DNA of 64,000 nucleotides from Lysobacter sp. yr284. Its GTDB lineage: Bacteria > Pseudomonadota > Gammaproteobacteria > Xanthomonadales > Xanthomonadaceae. Position numbers and translations under genes: made by a program. The notes beneath the pieces are model-generated. The model was not told where the DNA came from, searched no databases, and saw only the letters and a program-made list of their open reading frames with translations. The stretch lies in assembly GCF_900107375.1 (NCBI RefSeq), contig NZ_FNPT01000001.1:434001-498000 (forward strand), written 5' to 3'. This document shows, in pieces, positions 16,190-24,446 of this stretch (positions within the stretch are counted from its first letter, which is position 1; each line of letters begins with the position of its first letter).

Positions 16190-16279
16190 GGACGGGTCGC
16201 CTGATAGGGGAATGGGCCGCGAAAACCCCTGCAAATGCAGGCGTTTCTCGCTTGCCGTGAAATCTATTGGCGTATAGTG

Positions 16280-16296
16280 ATCCTCACAAGAAGGAT
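16280..16296. promoter_or_regulatory. Inverted repeat, candidate HxlR operator
   Basis: ATCCT (16280-16284) and AGGAT (16292-16296) form a perfect 5-bp inverted repeat with a 7-nt centre in the azoR/hxlR intergenic region. A TATAGT (16273-16278) just upstream resembles a -10 box for the regulator gene, with TTGCCG (16252) at a short 15-nt spacing. HxlR proteins bind such dyads as dimers; assignment is by position and symmetry only. Confidence 0.4.
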
Positions 16297-16313
16297 GATT
16301 TTCCGGACTAGGT

Positions 16314-16691
16314 ATGCCCGACCATACTGACGACACCTGCACCGCCCACGCCGACCGCGCCGAAGAAGGCCATGCCGAAATCCGCGCCGCGTTCTCCGCG
16401 TTCGCGGGCAAATGGAAGCTGGAAATCCTGTGGTTGCTGAGCCGGCGCCTGCATCGCTTCAACGAACTCAAGCGCGCGATTCCCGGTGTCACCCAGCACA
16501 TGCTGACCCAGCAGTTGCGCGAGCTGGAGGCCGACGGCATGGTGCGCAGAACGGTGTATCCCGAAATCCCGCCGCGGGTGGAATACGAGATCACCGAGGA
16601 CGCGCGCCGGCTGCGGCCGGTGTTCGAGGCGATCTTCGCCTGGTCGCGCCAGCGCGGCGCGGCCGGCCGCGACACCGACGCGGCCGCTTGA
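16314..16691 (+). CDS. HxlR-family winged-helix regulator
   Basis: A 125-residue HxlR-type regulator. The domain is recognisable from FAGKWKLEILWLL, the recognition region RFNELKRAIPGVTQHMLTQQLRELEADGMV, and the wing YPEIPPRVEYEITE. It begins with an acidic, His-containing N-terminal tail (MPDHTDDTCTAHADRAEEGH) with a single cysteine, which might serve as a redox or electrophile sensor. In related pairs HxlR proteins control neighbouring quinone or azo reductases and respond to electrophiles, which fits the divergent azoR gene. The function is inferred from family and position. Confidence 0.92.
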   Translation: MPDHTDDTCTAHADRAEEGHAEIRAAFSAFAGKWKLEILWLLSRRLHRFNELKRAIPGVTQHMLTQQLRELEADGMVRRTVYPEIPPRVEYEITEDARRLRPVFEAIFAWSRQRGAAGRDTDAAA

Positions 16692-16702
16692 GCCTTGCGC
16701 TG

Positions 16703-16790
16703 TCGTAGGAGCGCCTTCAGGCCCGATGCCCTTCGTGCAGGCCGCCTCGATCTGAAACAGGAACATCGGGCCTGAAGGCCTTGCCACAAG
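16703..16790. repeat. Dispersed palindromic repeat, family A
   Basis: Two inverted copies of a core related to GGAGGGCCTTCAGGCCCGA (near 16711-16728 and 16765-16782) enclose a middle segment of about 40 nt. The same arrangement recurs at 35354, 57664 and 63351. The element fills the gap between the HxlR gene and the DoxX operon. It is probably a REP/MITE-like extragenic palindrome. Confidence 0.75.
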
Positions 16791-16948
16791 AGCCGGGCCA
16801 CTGCGCCGGCGATATTTGTATCCCAATGTATCCGCCCGCTCCCACGCCACATTAGGCGACAAAACCCCGCCTTCCCCGACACGCTGCCGATACCGCATCG
16901 CTGCGAAATAGCGCCACACCCACCGGGCGCCATTTCCAGGAGCGAACC

Positions 16949-17629
16949 ATGCAGCCGTCCCCCGCCTCCACCCCCTTGTTCTCGCGCGTCGATTCGGTCG
17001 GCGCCTGGGTCGCGCCGGCCGCGCTGCGCGCGTTGCTGGCCTGGGAATTCATCGAGTCGGGCCTGGAGAAGCTCCACGGCGCGAACTGGTTCGCCGAACT
17101 CGGCGACAAGTTTCCCTGGCCGTTCTCGTTGCTCGGCGCCGATGCGTCCTGGTTCGCCGCGACCTGGCTGGAACTGATCGGCGGCGCCGCGCTGCTGCTC
17201 GGCCTGGGCACACGCTACGCCGCGTTCGCGCTGTGGGTGCTGACCGTGGTCGCGATCCACGCCGTGCACTGGCCCGAACAGTGGTCGAGCCTGACCGAGC
17301 TGTGGCAGGGCTATGCGATCAGCGACCAGGGCCACGGCAACTACAAGCTGCCGCTGATCTATCTGGTGATGCTGCTGCCGCTGGCGCTGCGCGGCGGCGG
17401 CCGGCTCAGCCTGGACCACGCCATCGCCCGCTACGTCCGCAGCGCTTCGCCCGACGCCGTCGCCGACGGCCGCACCTGGGCGCTGGTCGCGCTCGGCTTC
17501 GGCCTGCCCAGCGCCTTGCTGCTGCCGTGGTTCGGCGGCGCGCTGATCGCCCTGGCCGCAACCCTGGCGCTGGCCGCGACGCTGCGGCGCGCGCCTTCGC
17601 TGCGCCACGCCGTCGCGCTGCGCGGCTGA
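16949..17629 (+). CDS. hvfX: DoxX-family membrane protein of the MNIO RiPP operon
   Basis: A 226-residue integral membrane protein of the DoxX family. The N-terminal part has the typical [18 protein letters not shown] segment and [20 protein letters not shown]. Hydrophobic segments follow at about residues 80-100, 125-145 and 170-205. The start is supported by AGGAG at 16938-16942. In Hvf-type (DUF692) operons a DoxX protein is a frequent accessory, usually at the end of the operon; here it comes first, 87 nt ahead of the precursor gene. Its role is unknown; membrane redox or metal-peptide handling is possible. It lacks any soluble domain. Confidence 0.85.
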
Positions 17630-17716
17630 TCCGGCGCCTTCTTCCTCATTCGCTTCCGCGCCGCTACCGCGGCGCGCTTCCCCGCGGCTCGTCCGCACCT
17701 TCCCAGGAGTCACACC

Positions 17717-18133
17717 ATGTCGCGCAACCACACCACCGCCCGTCCCGCCCGCACCCTCGGCCTGCTCGGCGTCGCCCTCGGCGGCGGCCTGTTGCTGGCC
17801 GGCCAGGCTTTCGCTTCGCAGCCGCTGGCGCAGGGGTATCTGGTCTCCGCCGGCCACGCCGCCAAGACCGCCGAAGGCAAGTGCGGCGAGGGCAAGTGCG
17901 GCGAAGAAAGCTTCGCCAAGACCGACGCCAACCACGACGGCAAGGTCTCGCGCGAGGAGTTCGTCGCCCGCGCGCCCGACCGCGCCGCCGAGTTCGACGG
18001 CATCGACAAGAACCACGACGGCGCGATCTCGCTGCCGGAGGCGCTCGACTCGGTGAAGGCCGCGCGCAAGGCCGCCGGCAAGCCGGTCGGCGAAGGCAAG
18101 TGCGGCGAGGGCAAGTGCGGCGGCAAGCGCTGA
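17717..18133 (+). CDS. hvfA: HvfA-like RiPP precursor with EGKCG motifs around an EF-hand pair
   Basis: A 138-residue exported protein. Residues 1-33 look like a Sec signal peptide ending AFA. Its only four cysteines (56, 61, 129, 134) all lie in EGKCG motifs, arranged as one EGKCGEGKCG tandem after the signal and another at the C-terminus. Between them are two canonical EF-hand loops: D70-N72-D74-K76-S78-E81 and D97-N99-D101-A103-S105-E108. EGKCG cysteines are, as far as I know, the sites that HvfB/HvfC enzymes convert to copper-binding heterocycles in Haemophilus-type systems. The adjacent DUF692 and DUF2063 genes make this the natural substrate. The inserted EF-hands could couple calcium to copper binding, or be a stabilising scaffold. 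AGGAG at 17705-17709 sets the start. Confidence 0.88.
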   Translation: MSRNHTTARPARTLGLLGVALGGGLLLAGQAFASQPLAQGYLVSAGHAAKTAEGKCGEGKCGEESFAKTDANHDGKVSREEFVARAPDRAAEFDGIDKNHDGAISLPEALDSVKAARKAAGKPVGEGKCGEGKCGGKR

Positions 18134-18175
18134 GCGCCGGCCTTCGATCCATCCACCCGGCCGCCTGAGCCGGTT

Positions 18176-18208
18176 CGCCCCTTCCCTTCCCTCCCCGGGG
18201 AAGGGGCG
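18176..18208 (+). terminator. Attenuator-like hairpin between precursor and enzyme genes
   Basis: An 11-bp perfect stem (CGCCCCTTCCC at 18176-18186 with GGGAAGGGGCG at 18198-18208) and an 11-nt loop, followed by CTTTGTC. The weak T-tract suggests partial termination or 3'-end protection. That would make more precursor mRNA than enzyme mRNA, a common feature of RiPP operons. Confidence 0.55.
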
Positions 18209-18232
18209 CTTTGTCTTCGCGAGAACGCCGCC

Positions 18233-19102
18233 ATGACCGCATCCGCCCCATCGCCGCGCGCCGGCCTCGGCCTGCGCCGCGCCCTGATTCCGCAACTGCT
18301 GGCGATGGACGCCGGCGCGGTCGATTTCCTCGAATGCGCGCCCGACAACTGGATCGGCGTCGGCGGCCGCAACGGCGCCGCGCTGGCGCAGCTGGCCGCG
18401 CGCTTCCCGCTCAGCGGCCACGGCCTGTCGCTGTCGCTGGGCGGCACCGCGCCGCTCGACCTGGAACTGCTGCGGCGCACGCGCGGCTTCCTCGACCGCT
18501 TCGATGTCGCGCTGTACAGCGAGCACCTGAGCTACTGCAGCGACGACGGCCATCTCTACGACCTGCTGCCGATCCCGTTCACCGAAGAGGCCGTGGGCCA
18601 CGTCGCCGCGCGCATCCGCCAGGCCCAGGATGCGCTGGGCCGCCGCATCGCGGTGGAGAACGTTTCCTACTACGCCGCGCCGCACCAGGCGCTGGCCGAG
18701 GCCGACTTCATCCTCGCCGTGCTGGCCGAGGCCGATTGCGACCTGCTGCTCGACCTCAACAACCTCTACGTCAACGCCCACAACCACGGCTACGACGCAC
18801 GCGATTTCCTGGCCCGGCTGCCGGCCGCGCGCATCGCCTCGATGCACATCGCCGGCCATTACGACGACGAGGGCGGGCTGAAGATCGACACCCACGGCGC
18901 GCCGGTGCGCGACGACGTGTGGGACCTGCTGGCCGAAGCGTACTCGCGCTTCGGCGTGCGCCCGACCCTGCTGGAACGCGACTTCGGTTTCCCGCCGCTG
19001 GCCGAGTTGCTCGCGGAAGTCGAACGGATCCGTTCGCTGCAGGCAGCCGCCGTGCGCACAGCCGCGCCCGCCATCGAACACCTGGAGCCGGCCCATGTCT
19101 GA
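18233..19102 (+). CDS. hvfB: DUF692 multinuclear non-heme iron oxidase (MNIO), HvfB-like
   Basis: A 289-residue TIM-barrel protein of the DUF692/MbnB family (multinuclear non-heme iron-dependent oxidative enzymes). Conserved metal-site segments occur in family order: [10 protein letters not shown] (about 62-71), YSEHLSY (about 96-102), AVENVSYY (about 141-148), [14 protein letters not shown] (about 173-186), SMHIAGH (about 203-209) and a DTHG plus LLERD pair near the C-terminus. Family members oxidise cysteine residues of a peptide using two or three iron ions. The substrate here should be the EGKCG cysteines of the upstream protein. It overlaps the DUF2063 gene by 8 nt, implying translational coupling and a 1:1 complex. 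Confidence 0.93.
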
Positions 19103-19880
19103 GCGCCTGCGCCGCCAGCAGTTCGCCTTGACCCGGCACCTGCGCGATCCCAACCGCTACCCGCCGCCGCCCGGCATCGAGGAACGCCGCCTGCGGGTCT
19201 ACCGCGAACTGCTGTTCGGTTCGATCGAAGGCCTGCTCGCGGGCGGCTTCCCGGTCGTGCGGGCGACCCTGGGCGAGGCCGAATGGCGCGCGCTGGTGCG
19301 CCGCTTCTACGCCGCGCACCGCTGCGCGACGCCGTTGTTCCCGCAGGTCGGCGGCGAGTTCGTCGAATTCCTGCAGCGCCCGCGCGGCCGCGTGCGTGGC
19401 GCGCCGTGGCTGGCCGAACTGGCGCACTACGAGTGGGCCGAGGCCGCGCTGCTGGCCTGCGACGACGCCGCGCCCGCGCATTGCGCCGACGGCGACCTGC
19501 TCGACGGCGTGCCGCTGATCGCGCCGTGGGCGTGGTCGCTGGCCTACCGCTGGCCGGTGCACGAGATCGGCCCCGAACTGCGCCCGCGCCGCGCGCCGGC
19601 TTCGCCGAGTTTGCTGCTGGTGCATCGCGACCGCGACGGCGATGTGCGTTTCGCCCGCTTGACGCCGCTGTCGTATCGCCTGCTCGCCGCAGTGCGCGCG
19701 CAATCGCGCAGCGGCGCCGACCACCTGCGCGCGCTCGCCGCCGAAGCCGGCGCGCCGGCCGAGTCCTTGTTCGCCGAAGGCCGCGCCGCGCTCGCGCAAT
19801 GGCGCGACCAGGGCGTGGTGCTCGGCACCGTCGCCGACGCCGCTTCGCCGCCACCCGCCATCGCCAGGAGCCGCCCATGA
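19095..19880 (+). CDS. hvfC: DUF2063 partner protein, HvfC-like
   Basis: A 261-residue protein with the DUF2063 N-terminal domain ([48 protein letters not shown]) and the usual C-terminal half containing [15 protein letters not shown]. In MNIO systems this partner binds the precursor and presents it to the DUF692 enzyme, as MbnC does in methanobactin synthesis. It starts inside the MNIO gene (8-nt overlap) and overlaps the next gene by 4 nt (ATGA at 19877-19880). The whole set is therefore a tightly coupled operon. No signal peptide, consistent with modification in the cytoplasm before export. Confidence 0.9.
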
Positions 19881-20521
19881 TCGCGTCCCGTCCCACCTTC
19901 AGCGGCTGGCCGCTGCTTGGCCTGATCGCCGTCGCCGTGCTCGCCATGACCGGGCTGACCATCGCCGCGCAGGCCGACCTCGTCGAAGGCGTGCACAGCG
20001 CGGTGCGCGCCACCGCGCGCAGTTCGTTCGCGCTGTTCCTGCTGGTCTTCACCGCTTCGGCCTTCGCCGTCCTGCTGCCGGGGCCGGCCAGCGCCGCGCT
20101 GTTGCGCGAACGCCGCTACCTCGGCCTGGGGTTCGCGTTCTCGCACCTGGTCCACGCCATCGTCATCTACGCCTACGGCCGCCTGGCGCCGGAGTTCTGG
20201 CCCAGCCGTACCGGCCTGGCCAATGTGCCGGGCACGCTCGGCTACCTGTTCCTGATGGCGATGACGATCACTTCGTTCAAGCCGGTCGCGCGGCGCATGA
20301 GCGCGACCGCGTGGAAGCGCCTGCACACCGCCGGCATGTGGGTGCTGGCCGCGGTGTTCGCGCTGTCCTATTTCAAGCGCATTGCGATGAGCCCGGCGTA
20401 TGCGCTGCCGTTCGCGCTGCTGGCGGCGGCGGTCGCGATCCGCGTGCTCGGCAAGCTCGCCCAGGCGGGCAAGCGCCGCCGCCGCGCCGCCGCGCAAACC
20501 GCTGCGCTGCGTTCGTCCTGA
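19877..20521 (+). CDS. Ferric-reductase-like transmembrane protein
   Basis: A 214-residue polytopic membrane protein starting at ATG 19877, overlapping the DUF2063 stop by 4 nt. About six hydrophobic segments are visible. Histidines in FSHLVHAIVIYAYGRL and KRLHTAGMWVLAAVFALSYFKR resemble the heme-b ligands of ferric-reductase-like (MsrQ/NOX-type) domains. It ends in an Arg/Lys-rich cytoplasmic tail. Coupling to the Hvf-type genes suggests it supplies or removes electrons at the membrane, for example for periplasmic Cu(II)/Cu(I) or for the exported peptide. That role is inference. Confidence 0.75.
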   Translation: MIASRPTFSGWPLLGLIAVAVLAMTGLTIAAQADLVEGVHSAVRATARSSFALFLLVFTASAFAVLLPGPASAALLRERRYLGLGFAFSHLVHAIVIYAYGRLAPEFWPSRTGLANVPGTLGYLFLMAMTITSFKPVARRMSATAWKRLHTAGMWVLAAVFALSYFKRIAMSPAYALPFALLAAAVAIRVLGKLAQAGKRRRRAAAQTAALRSS

Positions 20522-20557
20522 GCCCTCCCCCCGCCGCTACGCCCCGGAGTCCAGACC

Positions 20558-21130
20558 ATGTCCCGCACCGCCTTGCCGCAACCGCCGTTCGCGATCAAAT
20601 CGCTGCTGCTCGCCCTGGGCCTGTGCCTGGGCGCGGTCGCCTGCACGCCCGGCGCCCAGGCCGAACCCGTGCAGCCCACCGCGCGCCAGCCGGCGCCGCC
20701 GGCGCCCGACTTCCAGGGCATCCACCGCTGGATCAACAGCCCGCCGCTGCGCATGAGCCAGTTGCGCGGCCAGGTGGTGCTGGTGGAGTTCTGGACCTAC
20801 GCCTGCATCAACTGCCTGCACGTGCAGCCGCACATCAACCGTTGGCATGCGCGCTACCGCGACCAAGGCCTGGCCGTGGTCGGCGTGCATACGCCCGAAT
20901 ACGACTACGAGCATCTCACCGGCAACGTCCAGAGCGCGGTGAAGCGCCTGGGCATCGAGTATCCGGTCGCGCAGGACAACGACTACGCCACCTGGAACGC
21001 CTACGGCAACCGCTTCTGGCCGGCGCTGTACCTGATCGACCGCGACGGGCGCATCGTCTACCGCCACTACGGCGAGGGCGACTACGAGCAGACCGAGGCG
21101 ATGATCCGCGAACTGCTGGCGCAGCGTTGA
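20558..21130 (+). CDS. Thioredoxin-like lipoprotein/periplasmic protein, CINC motif
   Basis: A 190-residue TlpA/DipZ-C-type thioredoxin-fold protein. The N-terminus has a hydrophobic segment ending AVACTPG, which may be a lipobox (Cys about 29), followed by a Pro-rich linker. The redox motif is CINC inside WTYACINCLHV; VVGVHTPEY, YPVAQDNDYATWNAYGNRFWPALYLID and the cis-Pro region complete the fold. It follows the ferric-reductase-like gene by 36 nt and is likely co-transcribed. A periplasmic disulfide reductase would suit keeping the EGKCG peptide or a copper site reduced, but this is inferred from context. Confidence 0.85.
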   Translation: MSRTALPQPPFAIKSLLLALGLCLGAVACTPGAQAEPVQPTARQPAPPAPDFQGIHRWINSPPLRMSQLRGQVVLVEFWTYACINCLHVQPHINRWHARYRDQGLAVVGVHTPEYDYEHLTGNVQSAVKRLGIEYPVAQDNDYATWNAYGNRFWPALYLIDRDGRIVYRHYGEGDYEQTEAMIRELLAQR

Positions 21131-21306
21131 GCCGCGGGCCCGGCCAATGGCGCCCGCGTCGCTCCCTCGCCCTCGTCTTTGACGCCTTCATTGCGGCAAA
21201 GCCGGAATGAGGAAATCAATCCCCACGCCACCTGGATTCGCACGCCCCACCCACCTGCCTCCACCGCCCCGTGCATAATCGCCACGCACCGCCCCCTGGA
21301 CCGGCC

Positions 21307-22047
21307 ATGAAACCCAGCGACCACATCCTGATCGTCGACGACGACCGCGACATCCGCGACATGGTCGCCGACTACCTGCGCAAGAACGGCCTGCGCGCCA
21401 GCACCGCCGCCGACGGCCGCGAGATGCGCGCGGCGCTGGAAGCGCAGGACATCGACCTGATCGTGCTCGACCTGATGCTGCCCGGCGACGACGGCCTGGT
21501 GCTGTGCCGCAACCTGCGCGCCGGCCCGCACAAGGCGATCCCGGTGCTGATGCTGACCGCGCGCGACGACGCCACCGACCGCATCGTCGGCCTGGAAATG
21601 GGCGCCGACGACTACCTGGCCAAGCCGTTCGCGCCGCGCGAGTTGCTGGCGCGGATCAATGCGGTGATCCGGCGCACGCGCATGCTGCCGCCGAACCTGC
21701 GGGTCAGCGAGGCGACGCGGTTGATCGCGTTCGGAAGCTGGCGCCTGGACACCACCGCGCGCCACCTGCTCGATCGCGACGGCACCGCCATCGCGCTCAG
21801 CGGCGCCGAGTTCCGCCTGCTGCGGGTGTTCCTCGACCATCCCCAGCGCGTGCTCAGCCGCGACCAGTTGCTCAACCTCACCCAGGGCCGCGACGCCGAA
21901 CACTTCGACCGCTCCATCGACCTGCTGGTCAGCCGCCTGCGCCAGCGCCTGCAGGACGACGCGCGCGACCAGAGCTACATCAAGACCGTGCGCAGCGAGG
22001 GCTATGTGTTCTCGCAAGCGGTCACCCTGGTCGGCGAAGACGCATGA
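21307..22047 (+). CDS. OmpR-family response regulator
   Basis: A 246-residue two-component regulator: an N-terminal receiver domain (acidic pair in VDDDRD, phospho-acceptor Asp in IVLDLMLPGDDG, Lys in YLAKPF) and a C-terminal OmpR winged helix (LSGAEFRLLRVFLDHPQRVLSR, IDLLVSRLRQRL, SYIKTVRSEGYVF). ATG 21307 starts exactly before the receiver. Its stop overlaps the start of the histidine-kinase gene (ATGA). The closest family resemblance is the OmpR/RstA group. It lies 176 nt after the MNIO operon and could regulate it, though no binding site was identified. Confidence 0.95.
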   Translation: MKPSDHILIVDDDRDIRDMVADYLRKNGLRASTAADGREMRAALEAQDIDLIVLDLMLPGDDGLVLCRNLRAGPHKAIPVLMLTARDDATDRIVGLEMGADDYLAKPFAPRELLARINAVIRRTRMLPPNLRVSEATRLIAFGSWRLDTTARHLLDRDGTAIALSGAEFRLLRVFLDHPQRVLSRDQLLNLTQGRDAEHFDRSIDLLVSRLRQRLQDDARDQSYIKTVRSEGYVFSQAVTLVGEDA

Positions 22048-23384
22048 CCGCCGCCGCCCCCGCCGAAAAGCGCAAGCGCGGCTGGCTGCCGCGCAGCATG
22101 GCCTCGCGCCTGTACCTGATCCTGTTCGCCGGGCTGGCGTTGGCGCACGCGCTGTCGTTCTCGCTGCTGTTCTACGAACGCTACGTCACCGCGACCTCGA
22201 TGATGCTCGGCAACCTCGAGCTCGACGTGCGTACCGCGGTCGCGGTGATCGACCGCCTGCCCGCGGACGAGCGCGCGCAGTGGCTGCCGCAGTTCAAGCG
22301 CCGCACCTATCACTATCTGCTCGGCCCGGGCGAACCCGGCCGGCCGCAGCTCAGCGCGCGCGCCCAAGACATCGTCGGCATGGTCGGCGGCGCCCTCGGC
22401 GCCCGCTACCCGCTGCGCGCGCAAACCGTCGGCACCCGGCCCGAGCGCTTCCAGATCCACCTGACCCTCAGCGACGGCCGGCCGCTGACGATCGAAGTGA
22501 TCCCCTCAACCATGCCGATCGCGCAATGGCTGCCGTACGTGCTCGCCGCGCAGTTGGCCTTGCTGCTGCTGTGCGCGTGGCTGGCCGTGCGCCAGGCCGC
22601 GCGCCCGCTCGAACGGCTGGCCCAGGCCGCGCAGGCGCTGAGCCCGGCCGGCGACGGCAAGCGCCTGGGCGAGACCGGCCCGACCGAAGTGGCCCAGGCC
22701 GCGGCCGCATTCAACGCCATGCAGGACCGCATCGGCGCCTACCTGCGCGAACGCCTGCAGATCCTCGCCGCGATCTCGCACGACCTGCAGACCCCGATCA
22801 CCCGCATGCGCCTGCGCACCGAAGCGATGGACGACTCGCCCGAACGCACCCGCCTGCTCGAAGACCTCGAACAGATCCAGCACCTGGTGCGCGAAGGCAT
22901 CGCCTACGCCCGCAGCGCCCACGGCAACGCCGAAAGCGCGATCAAGCTCGATCTAGACGCCTTCCTCGACAGCCTGGTCTGCGACTACCAGGACACCGGC
23001 AAAGCCGTATCCCTGAGCGGCCGCGCCGATGCCGCGCTGGTGACCCGCGCGCACGCGCTGCGGCGCGTCGCCACCAACCTCATCGACAACGCGGTGAAGT
23101 ACGCCGGCGCCGCCGAAGTGCAGGTTTCGCGCGACGCGGACGATGGTTTCCTGATCGAAGTGCTGGACCGCGGGCCGGGGATTCCGGTCGAAGAACTCGA
23201 TGCGGTGATGCAGCCGTTCTATCGGCTGGAGGCTTCGCGCAATCGCGACACCGGCGGCACCGGGCTGGGCCTGGCCATCGCCCAGCAACTGGCGCTGTCG
23301 CTGGGCGGGCGGCTGAGCCTGTCGCAGCGCGAAGGCGGCGGGTTGCGCGCGGCGTTGTGGTTGCCGGCGCAGGGGCGCGACTGA
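22044..23384 (+). CDS. Sensor histidine kinase
   Basis: A 446-residue membrane sensor kinase. There is a transmembrane helix at about 20-45, a periplasmic sensor loop of about 100 residues, and a second helix near 155-180. HAMP, the HisKA box (ISHDLQTPITRMRLR) and HATPase motifs (NLIDNAVKYA, DRGPGIP, GGTGLGLAI) follow. It overlaps the response regulator gene by 4 nt, so the pair is translated together. The sensor loop has no recognisable metal-binding motif, so the signal is unknown. It is convergent with the next gene, leaving only 30 nt. Confidence 0.95.
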   Translation: MTAAAPAEKRKRGWLPRSMASRLYLILFAGLALAHALSFSLLFYERYVTATSMMLGNLELDVRTAVAVIDRLPADERAQWLPQFKRRTYHYLLGPGEPGRPQLSARAQDIVGMVGGALGARYPLRAQTVGTRPERFQIHLTLSDGRPLTIEVIPSTMPIAQWLPYVLAAQLALLLLCAWLAVRQAARPLERLAQAAQALSPAGDGKRLGETGPTEVAQAAAAFNAMQDRIGAYLRERLQILAAISHDLQTPITRMRLRTEAMDDSPERTRLLEDLEQIQHLVREGIAYARSAHGNAESAIKLDLDAFLDSLVCDYQDTGKAVSLSGRADAALVTRAHALRRVATNLIDNAVKYAGAAEVQVSRDADDGFLIEVLDRGPGIPVEELDAVMQPFYRLEASRNRDTGGTGLGLAIAQQLALSLGGRLSLSQREGGGLRAALWLPAQGRD

Positions 23385-23414
23385 GGGTCCCTCCAGGGCC
23401 GCTCGCCGCCGAGG

Positions 23415-24446
23415 TCAATCCTCGCCCAGATACAGGCGCAACGGCTCCGGCGCCAACGCGGCGAGAAAGTCCGCCGCATCGAAGGCATCGCCCGCGGCGC
23501 GCACGCCGGCGCCGCGGCAGCGGCCGTCGAGCACCCGCTCCATCGCTTCCACCAGCAGCGGCGCGGTCGCCGCGTAGATGTCGCGGCCGGACGCGCCGAG
23601 CGCGCGGATTTCGCCGCCGCGCCGCACCCGCGCCTCGATCGCGAACACCTGCGCCGAACGGCCGCTGGCATCGGCCGCGACCGGCGCCGGCGTGGCCGGG
23701 TCGCGCACATCGCGCAGCGAGCCCTGGTCGAGATAAGCGACCGCGTCGCGCGTGCGCAGATGCCGCGACAGCAAGGCGATCTCGCTCATCGGCACGGCCG
23801 CGACCGGCTGCGTCCCGAACGCCGCGCCGAAGGTCCAGTCGCGCGTCGGCGGCGGGCTCGGCGCCTCGATCAGGGCGCCGTTTTCGAGCACCAGGCGCTT
23901 GGCGGTATTGCGCTCGCCGGTGATGCGCGTGCCCGCCGTTGGATGCCAAGCGTCCAGCGCCACCGCGATCTCGACCGCATCGGCGCGGTCCCAGTCGCCC
24001 ATCGCCGCGGTCGCGAGCAGGTCGCCCAGGCCGCCATAGAACGCCATCGCCGGAACCACGGCGATGCCGGCCGCGCGCGCGGCCGCATCGAAGCGCTCGA
24101 ACGCCGCCAACACCGGTTGCTGTTCGGCCGCGGTGTCGAGGTAGGCGATGCGGGCGCGCAAGGCCGCTTCGATCAGCGGCGCGGCGGTGTCGGAAAACGG
24201 CCCGGCGCAGTTGAGCACCGCGGCGCAGCCGGCCAGGGCGGCGTCGAGCGAGGCCGGATCGTCCGCCCGCGCCGCGCACGTTTCGCTGTCGGGCCACGCG
24301 GCCGCCGCCTGCGCCAGCCGCGCAGGATCGCGCCCGCACAGGCGCGGCCGCCAGCCGCGCTCGCGCAGGCGCGCGACGACGAAGCGGCCGGTGTGGCCGT
24401 ATGCGCCGAATACGGCGATCGACAGCGAGGGGGCGATTGCGCTCAT
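23415..24446 (-). CDS. Saccharopine dehydrogenase-like NAD(P)-binding protein
   Basis: A 343-residue protein with an N-terminal Rossmann fold (AVFGAYGHTGRFV, the GxxGxxG pattern of the saccharopine dehydrogenase/trans-acting enoyl reductase superfamily) and conserved NCAGPFSDT and YLDTAAEQ segments. The C-terminal half is variable. Homologues are commonly annotated as saccharopine dehydrogenase family or membrane-associated enoyl reductase-like; the substrate cannot be predicted. It stands alone, convergent with the histidine kinase and divergent from the small gene at 24566. Confidence 0.85.
   Translation of the reverse strand: MSAIAPSLSIAVFGAYGHTGRFVVARLRERGWRPRLCGRDPARLAQAAAAWPDSETCAARADDPASLDAALAGCAAVLNCAGPFSDTAAPLIEAALRARIAYLDTAAEQQPVLAAFERFDAAARAAGIAVVPAMAFYGGLGDLLATAAMGDWDRADAVEIAVALDAWHPTAGTRITGERNTAKRLVLENGALIEAPSPPPTRDWTFGAAFGTQPVAAVPMSEIALLSRHLRTRDAVAYLDQGSLRDVRDPATPAPVAADASGRSAQVFAIEARVRRGGEIRALGASGRDIYAATAPLLVEAMERVLDGRCRGAGVRAAGDAFDAADFLAALAPEPLRLYLGED

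What the first reader, a model, noticed from the sequence alone, without database searches (positions are those of the whole stretch)
16949..21130. MNIO (DUF692) operon with an EGKCG precursor that contains two EF-hands
The precursor at 17717 carries four EGKCG motifs, two on each side of a pair of canonical calcium loops, and has no other cysteines. Directly downstream are DUF692 and DUF2063 genes (8-nt overlap). This is the composition of HvfABC-type copper-peptide systems. A modified, metal-binding tail on both sides of an EF-hand module would be an unusual Ca2+/Cu-linked RiPP. I do not know whether EF-hand forms have been described.
Basis: partly seen in the sequence, partly recalled or inferred. 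Interest (0 to 1): 0.88.

Follow-up and report, generated by a model that had tools for sequence, protein, structure and literature searches.

The report
EF-hand copper-peptide operon, BfmR-type control
A soil-type bacterium carries a gene set predicted to make a secreted calcium-binding protein with two chemically altered cysteine tails that could hold copper; it looks like a variant of the known Pseudomonas calcium protein EfhP and its BfmR regulator, so it is a new twist on a known system.

Summary
The 138-aa precursor (17717-18133) has four EGKCG motifs, two on each side of two canonical EF-hand loops, and no other cysteine. HvfX (DoxX) precedes it; HvfB (MNIO) and HvfC (DUF2063) follow, overlapping by 8 nt.

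EF-hand forms are already in print. Antoine et al. 2025 describe Buf_EGKCG|EF-hand chimaeras and cite P. aeruginosa EfhP; in the passages I read, only with EGKCG on the N-terminal side.

New here: (1) The locus has the gene set of the P. aeruginosa efhP/ferric-reductase/bfmRS region. (2) The BfmR-type box GATACA-N4-GATACA stands upstream of HvfX, and in 18 of 18 genus promoters of this cluster (16 exact); whole genomes hold 0-2 exact copies. (3) The box separates two kinds of EF-hand precursor: 38 of 45 HvfB loci in the EfhP clade have it; of two-sided loci outside, 0 of 99. (4) Two-sided forms are common in the family (79 of 171 HvfB loci); the window's arose separately, inside the EfhP clade. 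(5) 32 of 80 homologue loci lack HvfB nearby; of 33 genomes searched, 32 encode HvfB.

Cysteine modification, copper binding and calcium binding are inferred. New variant of a known kind.

The parts
16817..16832 (-). BfmR-type operator, GATACATTGGGATACA, 116 bp upstream of the HvfX start codon
   Evidence: exact; the only site in the window at up to 2 mismatches; expected 0.33 at that laxness; 2 exact sites in the 6.25 Mb genome; 18 of 18 genus promoters
16949..17629 (+). HvfX (DoxX family) membrane protein
   Evidence: NF050144 131.6 bits, cut-off 80; DoxX Pfam
17717..18133 (+). Precursor, EfhP-type HvfA with EGKCG pairs on both sides of an EF-hand pair (138 aa)
17717..17815 (+). Sec signal peptide, residues 1-33, cleavage predicted after AFA (read by eye, no predictor run)
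   Evidence: Sequence; in the genus alignment A31, A33, Q35 and P36 are invariant
17873..17902 (+). N-terminal EGKCGEGKCG pair (C56, C61)
17924..17959 (+). EF-hand loop 1 (D70-E81)
   Evidence: Pfam EF-hand_5 and EF-hand_1
18005..18040 (+). EF-hand loop 2 (D97-E108)
   Evidence: Two EF-hand_5 stretches; helix-loop-helix pair in the model
18092..18121 (+). C-terminal EGKCGEGKCG pair (C129, C134)
   Evidence: present in 7 of 18 genus orthologues
18176..18208 (+). Hairpin between precursor and HvfB (12-bp stem), possible attenuator
   Evidence: longest stem run 9-18 bp in 18 of 18 genus gaps; 0-15% of shuffles do as well, 9% for this window; terminator scan no richer than shuffles
18233..19102 (+). 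HvfB, MNIO maturase
   Evidence: NF003818 408.7 bits, cut-off 360; PF05114 339.1; PDB 3bww 2.8e-70
19095..19880 (+). HvfC, DUF2063 partner protein
   Evidence: NF050145 279.1 bits, cut-off 142
19877..20521 (+). Ferric-reductase-like membrane protein, overlaps HvfC by 4 nt
   Evidence: PF01794 36 bits, cut-off 28; found in 18 of 18 genus loci
20558..21130 (+). TlpA/ResA-like periplasmic thioredoxin-fold protein
   Evidence: AhpC-TSA and Redoxin over cut-off; in 16 of 18 genus stretches
21307..22047 (+). OmpR-class response regulator, counterpart of BfmR by position and box
   Evidence: Pfam; orthologue in 19 of 20 genus genomes
22044..23384 (+). Sensor histidine kinase, counterpart of BfmS by position
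   Evidence: NCBIfam kinase hits below every cut-off shown; found in 13 of 18 genus stretches, some of which end before it

Best explanation
This is the local form of the EfhP/BfmRS stress locus. Steps inferred: the envelope two-component system encoded at its end activates the operon through the GATACA-N4-GATACA box; HvfB with HvfC converts the cysteines of the EGKCG pairs to 5-thiooxazole thiols in the cytoplasm; Sec exports the product; in the periplasm the EF-hand pair binds calcium and folds, while the two flexible tails bind copper (or another soft metal). HvfX, the ferric-reductase-like protein and the TlpA-like protein would handle redox or loading. Shown here by sequence: gene content, domains, conservation of both motif pairs, the box, and the clade. 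Not shown: modification, metal binding, BfmR binding in this organism.
For: HvfX/B/C models over cut-off. HvfX-precursor-HvfB-HvfC-ferric reductase in 18 of 18 genus loci and the response regulator within about 5 kb of HvfB in the same 18 genomes (one search places). Same gene set as PA4107-4105, PA4103-4104 and bfmRS; in P. aeruginosa BfmR binds the PA4107 and PA4103 promoters and efhP is its most activated gene, 11,268-fold (PMC4148453, PMC8025907, passages). Box exact in 16 and with one mismatch in 2 of 18 promoters, at up to 2 mismatches 0 of 20 in the second cluster; 27 exact sites in 20 genomes, 16 of them at this promoter, control pattern 0. EfhP clade of HvfB: 38 of 45 loci with the box at up to 1 mismatch, outside 2 of 171. 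EF spacing 27 as in EfhP (D88/D115, PMC9132961, passages). Model: EF-hand pair with flexible flanks. EGKCG products of homologous clusters carry 5-thiooxazole and bind Cu, and two repeats are the shortest substrate modified (PMC13097082, passages).
Against: No experiment on this locus. The full HvfA equivalog model is not reached (23.8 against 95). EfhP binds calcium with Kd 13.7 uM as unmodified E. coli protein, so calcium binding need not depend on the MNIO. Copper is not mentioned as a function in the EfhP passages that I saw; EfhP is linked there to iron uptake. The box as I wrote it was read off the window after seeing the published TACAA-N3-GATACA; the window has one mismatch to that form. 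7 of 45 EfhP-clade loci have no box (4 of them group with Stenotrophomonas). One genus genome (G010) has the regulator without cluster 1. The model is weak overall (mean pLDDT 56.7) and Foldseek finds nothing at E 0.001 or better.
Confidence: 0.68

Rival explanations
1. It is mainly a periplasmic calcium sensor of the EfhP kind. The EGKCG tails and their modification serve localisation, stability or contact with partners, not copper storage.
For: EfhP binds Ca2+ with loop-dependent affinity and is needed for a large part of the calcium response, including iron uptake (PMC9132961, PMC11559002, passages). Orphan forms carry as few as one EGKCG pair (17 of 32), little for a storage role.
Against: The motif pairs are fixed while the EF core varies (pN 0 against 0.094); MNIO and partner genes stay adjacent in 18 of 18 genus loci; the number of motifs varies from 2 to 8 in the genus, as in a metal-binding array.
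Confidence: 0.2
2. A copper buffer like other EGKCG products, in which the EF-hand pair is only a soluble spacer or a calcium-dependent folding aid in the periplasm.
For: EF hands come and go: 67 of 171 HvfB loci have precursors without them, and the label changes at least 14 times on the HvfB tree (one of its no-EF labels, L075, is an artefact).
Against: Loop positions are kept in the genus set, and the EfhP-type EF pair is kept in 45 of 45 clade loci.
Confidence: 0.3
3. The cysteines are not modified; the neighbouring MNIO acts on another substrate.
For: 32 of 80 homologue loci have no HvfB within the stretch held; bufferin genes away from MNIO genes are also reported (PMC12452194, section 20).
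Against: No other Cys-rich ORF was seen between HvfX and HvfB; of 33 genomes searched 32 encode HvfB over the cut-off; 29 of 32 orphans carry the same box.
Confidence: 0.08

Closest known systems
EfhP (PA4107) with PA4106-PA4105 and bfmRS, P. aeruginosa
   Same: Secreted EF-hand pair with 27-residue loop spacing, DUF692 and DUF2063 next, ferric-reductase-like and BfmRS genes nearby, GATACA-type regulator site (PMC4053335, PMC9132961, PMC4148453, PMC8025907; passages)
   Different: Second EGKCG pair after the EF hands; one co-directional gene run with HvfX first and a TlpA-like gene. EfhP's own letters were not compared here.
[quoted passage not shown] 2025, PMC12452194)
   Same: EGKCG region, two EF-hand_5 domains, MNIO/DUF2063/DoxX neighbours; ferric reductase in a few clusters
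   Different: Described with EF hands fused to the C-terminus of the EGKCG region; EGKCG on both sides not seen in sections 15, 20 and the passages read
HvfABC oxazolin, fontiphorin and gonophorin (captophorins, PMC13097082)
   Same: EGKCG pairs, MNIO plus DUF2063 partner, signal-peptide-type precursor
   Different: No EF-hand mentioned in that text (0 occurrences); this precursor does not reach the HvfA equivalog cut-off
Second HvfA cluster of the same genome (L001/L161)
   Same: Own HvfB and HvfC, LSQGY-type start of the mature peptide, EGKCG pair at the end
   Different: No EF hands, EGSCG as well as EGKCG, no BfmR-type box

Membership tests
HvfABC-type MNIO cluster (captophorin) | MNIO of the HvfB family | tested here: met
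   NF003818 408.7 against 360; BufB NF050167 not reached, 272.5 against 310
HvfABC-type MNIO cluster (captophorin) | DUF2063 partner (HvfC/PME1) | tested here: met
   NF050145 279.1 against 142
HvfABC-type MNIO cluster (captophorin) | Precursor with EGKCG repeats | tested here: met
   NF050137 31.1 against 19.5; four motifs
HvfABC-type MNIO cluster (captophorin) | 5-thiooxazole on cysteine | not testable with these tools
   Needs mass spectrometry or NMR
HvfA equivalog (NF050188) | Full-length model over its cut-off | tested here: not met
   23.8 against 95: not filed as plain HvfA
Bufferin type 1 (DUF2282) | DUF2282 domain | tested here: not met
   No such Pfam match at E 0.1
EfhP group | HvfB in the clade of EfhP-type Pseudomonas loci | tested here: met
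   26-row clade at SH-aLRT 93; 45-row clade at 0.904
EfhP group | BfmR-type box at the promoter | tested here: met
EfhP group | Direct sequence comparison with EfhP itself | not tested
   EfhP letters were not fetched; relation rests on named Pseudomonas loci, synteny and loop spacing
EF-hand protein | Two canonical 12-residue loops | tested here: met
   Pfam over cut-off
EF-hand protein | Predicted EF-hand fold matched to solved structures | tested here: inconclusive
   Helix-loop-helix pair at block pLDDT about 74-87; best Foldseek hits are EF-hand proteins but at E 0.01
EF-hand protein | Calcium binding | not testable with these tools
   Needs calorimetry

The most novel reading that the evidence does not exclude
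A calcium-gated copper clamp: calcium binding closes the EF-hand pair so that the two tails, which should leave the same face of the domain, bring two thiooxazole pairs into one copper site; a BfmRS-type envelope signal makes the protein. By extension EfhP of Pseudomonas would work as a modified metallophore, and its published biophysics, done on unmodified protein, would describe only half of it.
Probability: 0.18. Interest if true: 0.82.

Novelty: new variant of a known kind. Interest (0 to 1): 0.52.

Why it matters
It joins two literatures: EfhP as calcium sensor and BfmR target, and EGKCG peptides as MNIO-made copper metallophores. Antoine et al. link EfhP to the chimaeras; the link to BfmR and its box across genera I did not find in what I searched (of 34 papers with two of BfmR/DUF692/MNIO/bufferin I saw the ten listed). 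It predicts that EfhP-type proteins are modified in the cell and makes calcium-copper coupling directly testable. The box also tells which of the many EF-hand chimaeras belong to the EfhP regulon, including those with no MNIO next to them.

Tried and rejected
Rejected: bufferin type 1 (no DUF2282); riboswitch or other Rfam element (0 matches at E 1 in 16200-23500); sigma-70-like promoter (0 found); the idea that two-sidedness is unique to the window; one origin of all two-sided forms (the window's HvfB lies apart from the others; within cluster 1 the 7 two-sided rows are one clade at 90/91, supported but not starred). Led nowhere: solved structures with the precursor gave only weak eukaryotic EF-hand hits; Foldseek nothing at E 0.001; lanmodulin and XopAW models hit far below cut-off. 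The intergenic hairpin is recurrent but weak on its own in this window (z -1.21; 9% of shuffles).

Weak points of the counts: EF and motif classes come from patterns, with start codons chosen by rule; the three 'C-only' cases may be start-choice artefacts. The family listing of HvfB was capped. Of 219 HvfB loci 216 went into the trees; L099 (short HvfB), L104 (precursor not upstream) and L188 (masked bases) were dropped; L075 is labelled no-EF wrongly, its precursor lies downstream. The 216 rows hold 206 distinct HvfB-precursor pairs, 89 distinct among the 99 two-sided ones outside the EfhP clade. The box scan covered 2400 bases upstream of HvfB, not only the promoter.
Full report
1. Observation. 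The precursor, its four EGKCG motifs and two EF-hand loops are as described, and HvfB and HvfC overlap by 8 nt.

2. Prior art. Antoine et al. 2025 (PMC12452194; abstract, sections 15 and 20, passages) describe EGKCG precursors in which two EF-hand_5 domains are fused to the C-terminus of a short EGKCG region, and name EfhP of P. aeruginosa as example for a calcium role. EfhP lies in an operon with DUF692 and DUF2063 genes (PMC4053335, passages), has loops starting at D88 and D115, and binds calcium at 13.7 uM as protein made alone in E. coli (PMC9132961, passages). A search for DUF692 with EF-hand gave four papers. So EF-hand forms are not new. I did not see EGKCG on both sides described in the passages read.

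3. Relatives in the genus. Of 20 genomes, 18 hold an orthologue of this cluster: 7 two-sided, 11 with EGKCG only before the EF hands (2 to 8 motifs) and a tail of the KPMPxGLF kind. The two others (G010, G013) have only the second HvfB cluster. On a tree of HvfB, HvfC, HvfX and ferric reductase the 7 two-sided loci form one clade (90/91, not starred). Their motif codons show only synonymous differences (48 to 0 over all pairs), the EF core has pN 0.094 and pS 0.244.

4. Relatives elsewhere. All 27 two-sided loci have HvfB in the stretch; 32 N-only loci do not. Of 33 genomes searched, with 31 of the 32 orphan loci and 4 two-sided loci, 32 have HvfB over the cut-off; the other is a MAG with a fragment at a contig end. 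In 171 HvfB loci of the family (38 from the genus; listing capped) the precursors are 79 two-sided with EF hands, 22 N-only with EF hands, 67 without EF hands, 3 apparent C-only; one of the 67 is partly masked (L188).

5. Two kinds of EF-hand precursor. On HvfB trees the window falls in a clade of mainly N-only, EfhP-type loci of Pseudomonas, Stenotrophomonas, Steroidobacter and the genus: 24 N-only and 2 two-sided rows at SH-aLRT 93, 38 and 7 with all rows (0.904). The other two-sided loci lie outside. So the window's C-terminal pair is a separate gain (or the others' loss); counts of changes cannot tell gain from loss.

6. The BfmR link. In P. aeruginosa BfmR directly controls PA4107-4105, PA4103-4104 and bfmRS; these promoters are its top three ChIP peaks and efhP its most activated gene (PMC4148453, PMC8025907, passages). 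The printed motif is TACAA-N3-GATACA. The window holds GATACA-N4-GATACA 116 bp before HvfX; it has one mismatch to the printed form, and I chose the repeat form after seeing it, so the other genomes are the test. They pass: exact in 16 and one mismatch in 2 of 18 promoters of this cluster; at up to two mismatches none in 20 stretches of the second cluster. In 20 whole genomes there are 27 exact sites, 16 at this promoter and 11 elsewhere; the control pattern gives 0. In the window alone the chance control is weak at two mismatches (28 of 100 shuffles have a site). Among 216 HvfB loci the box (up to 1 mismatch) is in 38 of 45 of the EfhP clade, all 7 two-sided ones among them, and in 2 of 171 others, both without EF hands; control 0. 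Of the 32 orphans 29 carry it within 400 bases, mostly near 190. The response regulator has an orthologue in 19 of 20 genus genomes, within about 5 kb of HvfB of this cluster in all 18 that have the cluster. Its similarity to Pseudomonas regulators at the same place is 76-78% (L055, L059, L078, L103, L104). P. aeruginosa BfmR itself was not compared.

7. Structure. AlphaFold2 on 18 sequences gives an EF-hand-like pair for residues 63-120 and unstructured flanks (mean pLDDT 56.7). Foldseek ranks calmodulin-like proteins first but at E 0.01. That both tails leave one face of the pair is general knowledge of EF-hand lobes, not measured here.

8. Mechanism and judgement. Homologous enzymes make 5-thiooxazole on EGKCG, the product binds copper, and a two-repeat peptide was modified where a one-repeat one was not (PMC13097082, section 7 and passages). 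A pair on each side is thus enough for two substrate sites (inference). The most likely reading is a BfmRS-type-controlled, calcium-binding, thiooxazole metallophore of the EfhP kind. What is new is the two-sided variant, its frequency, and the regulon link; the kind is known.

Noticed in passing
L001 / L161 (G000:C32 near 821103): Second MNIO cluster of the same genome, with an HvfA of eight G.CG motifs, six of them in the EGSCG/EGKCG spacer style and no EF hands; 20 of 20 genus loci of this cluster lack EF hands.
   Followed up: partly
L314 2501-2516 (G000:C12:42812): The second exact GATACA-N4-GATACA site of the genome lies between an alpha/beta-hydrolase-like ORF and a large transporter-like ORF (names by eye); ten other genus genomes have such a second site, and the three others that I looked at (L319, L321, L323) also have a hydrolase-like ORF beside it.
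   Followed up: partly
18176-18208: Hairpins of unrelated sequence stand between precursor and HvfB in 18 of 18 genus loci; perhaps they raise precursor mRNA over enzyme mRNA.
   Followed up: partly
L033-L042, L044-L046 and others: Pseudomonas EfhP-type precursors with a single EGKCG pair (17 of 32 orphans), away from HvfB but mostly with the box: modification in trans would be needed.
   Followed up: partly
L236, L287: Two loci without EF hands, outside the EfhP clade, have a BfmR-type site upstream of HvfB.
   Followed up: no
16314-16691: HxlR-family regulator gene just before the box, on the same strand; seen in only 4 of the 18 genus stretches.
   Followed up: no
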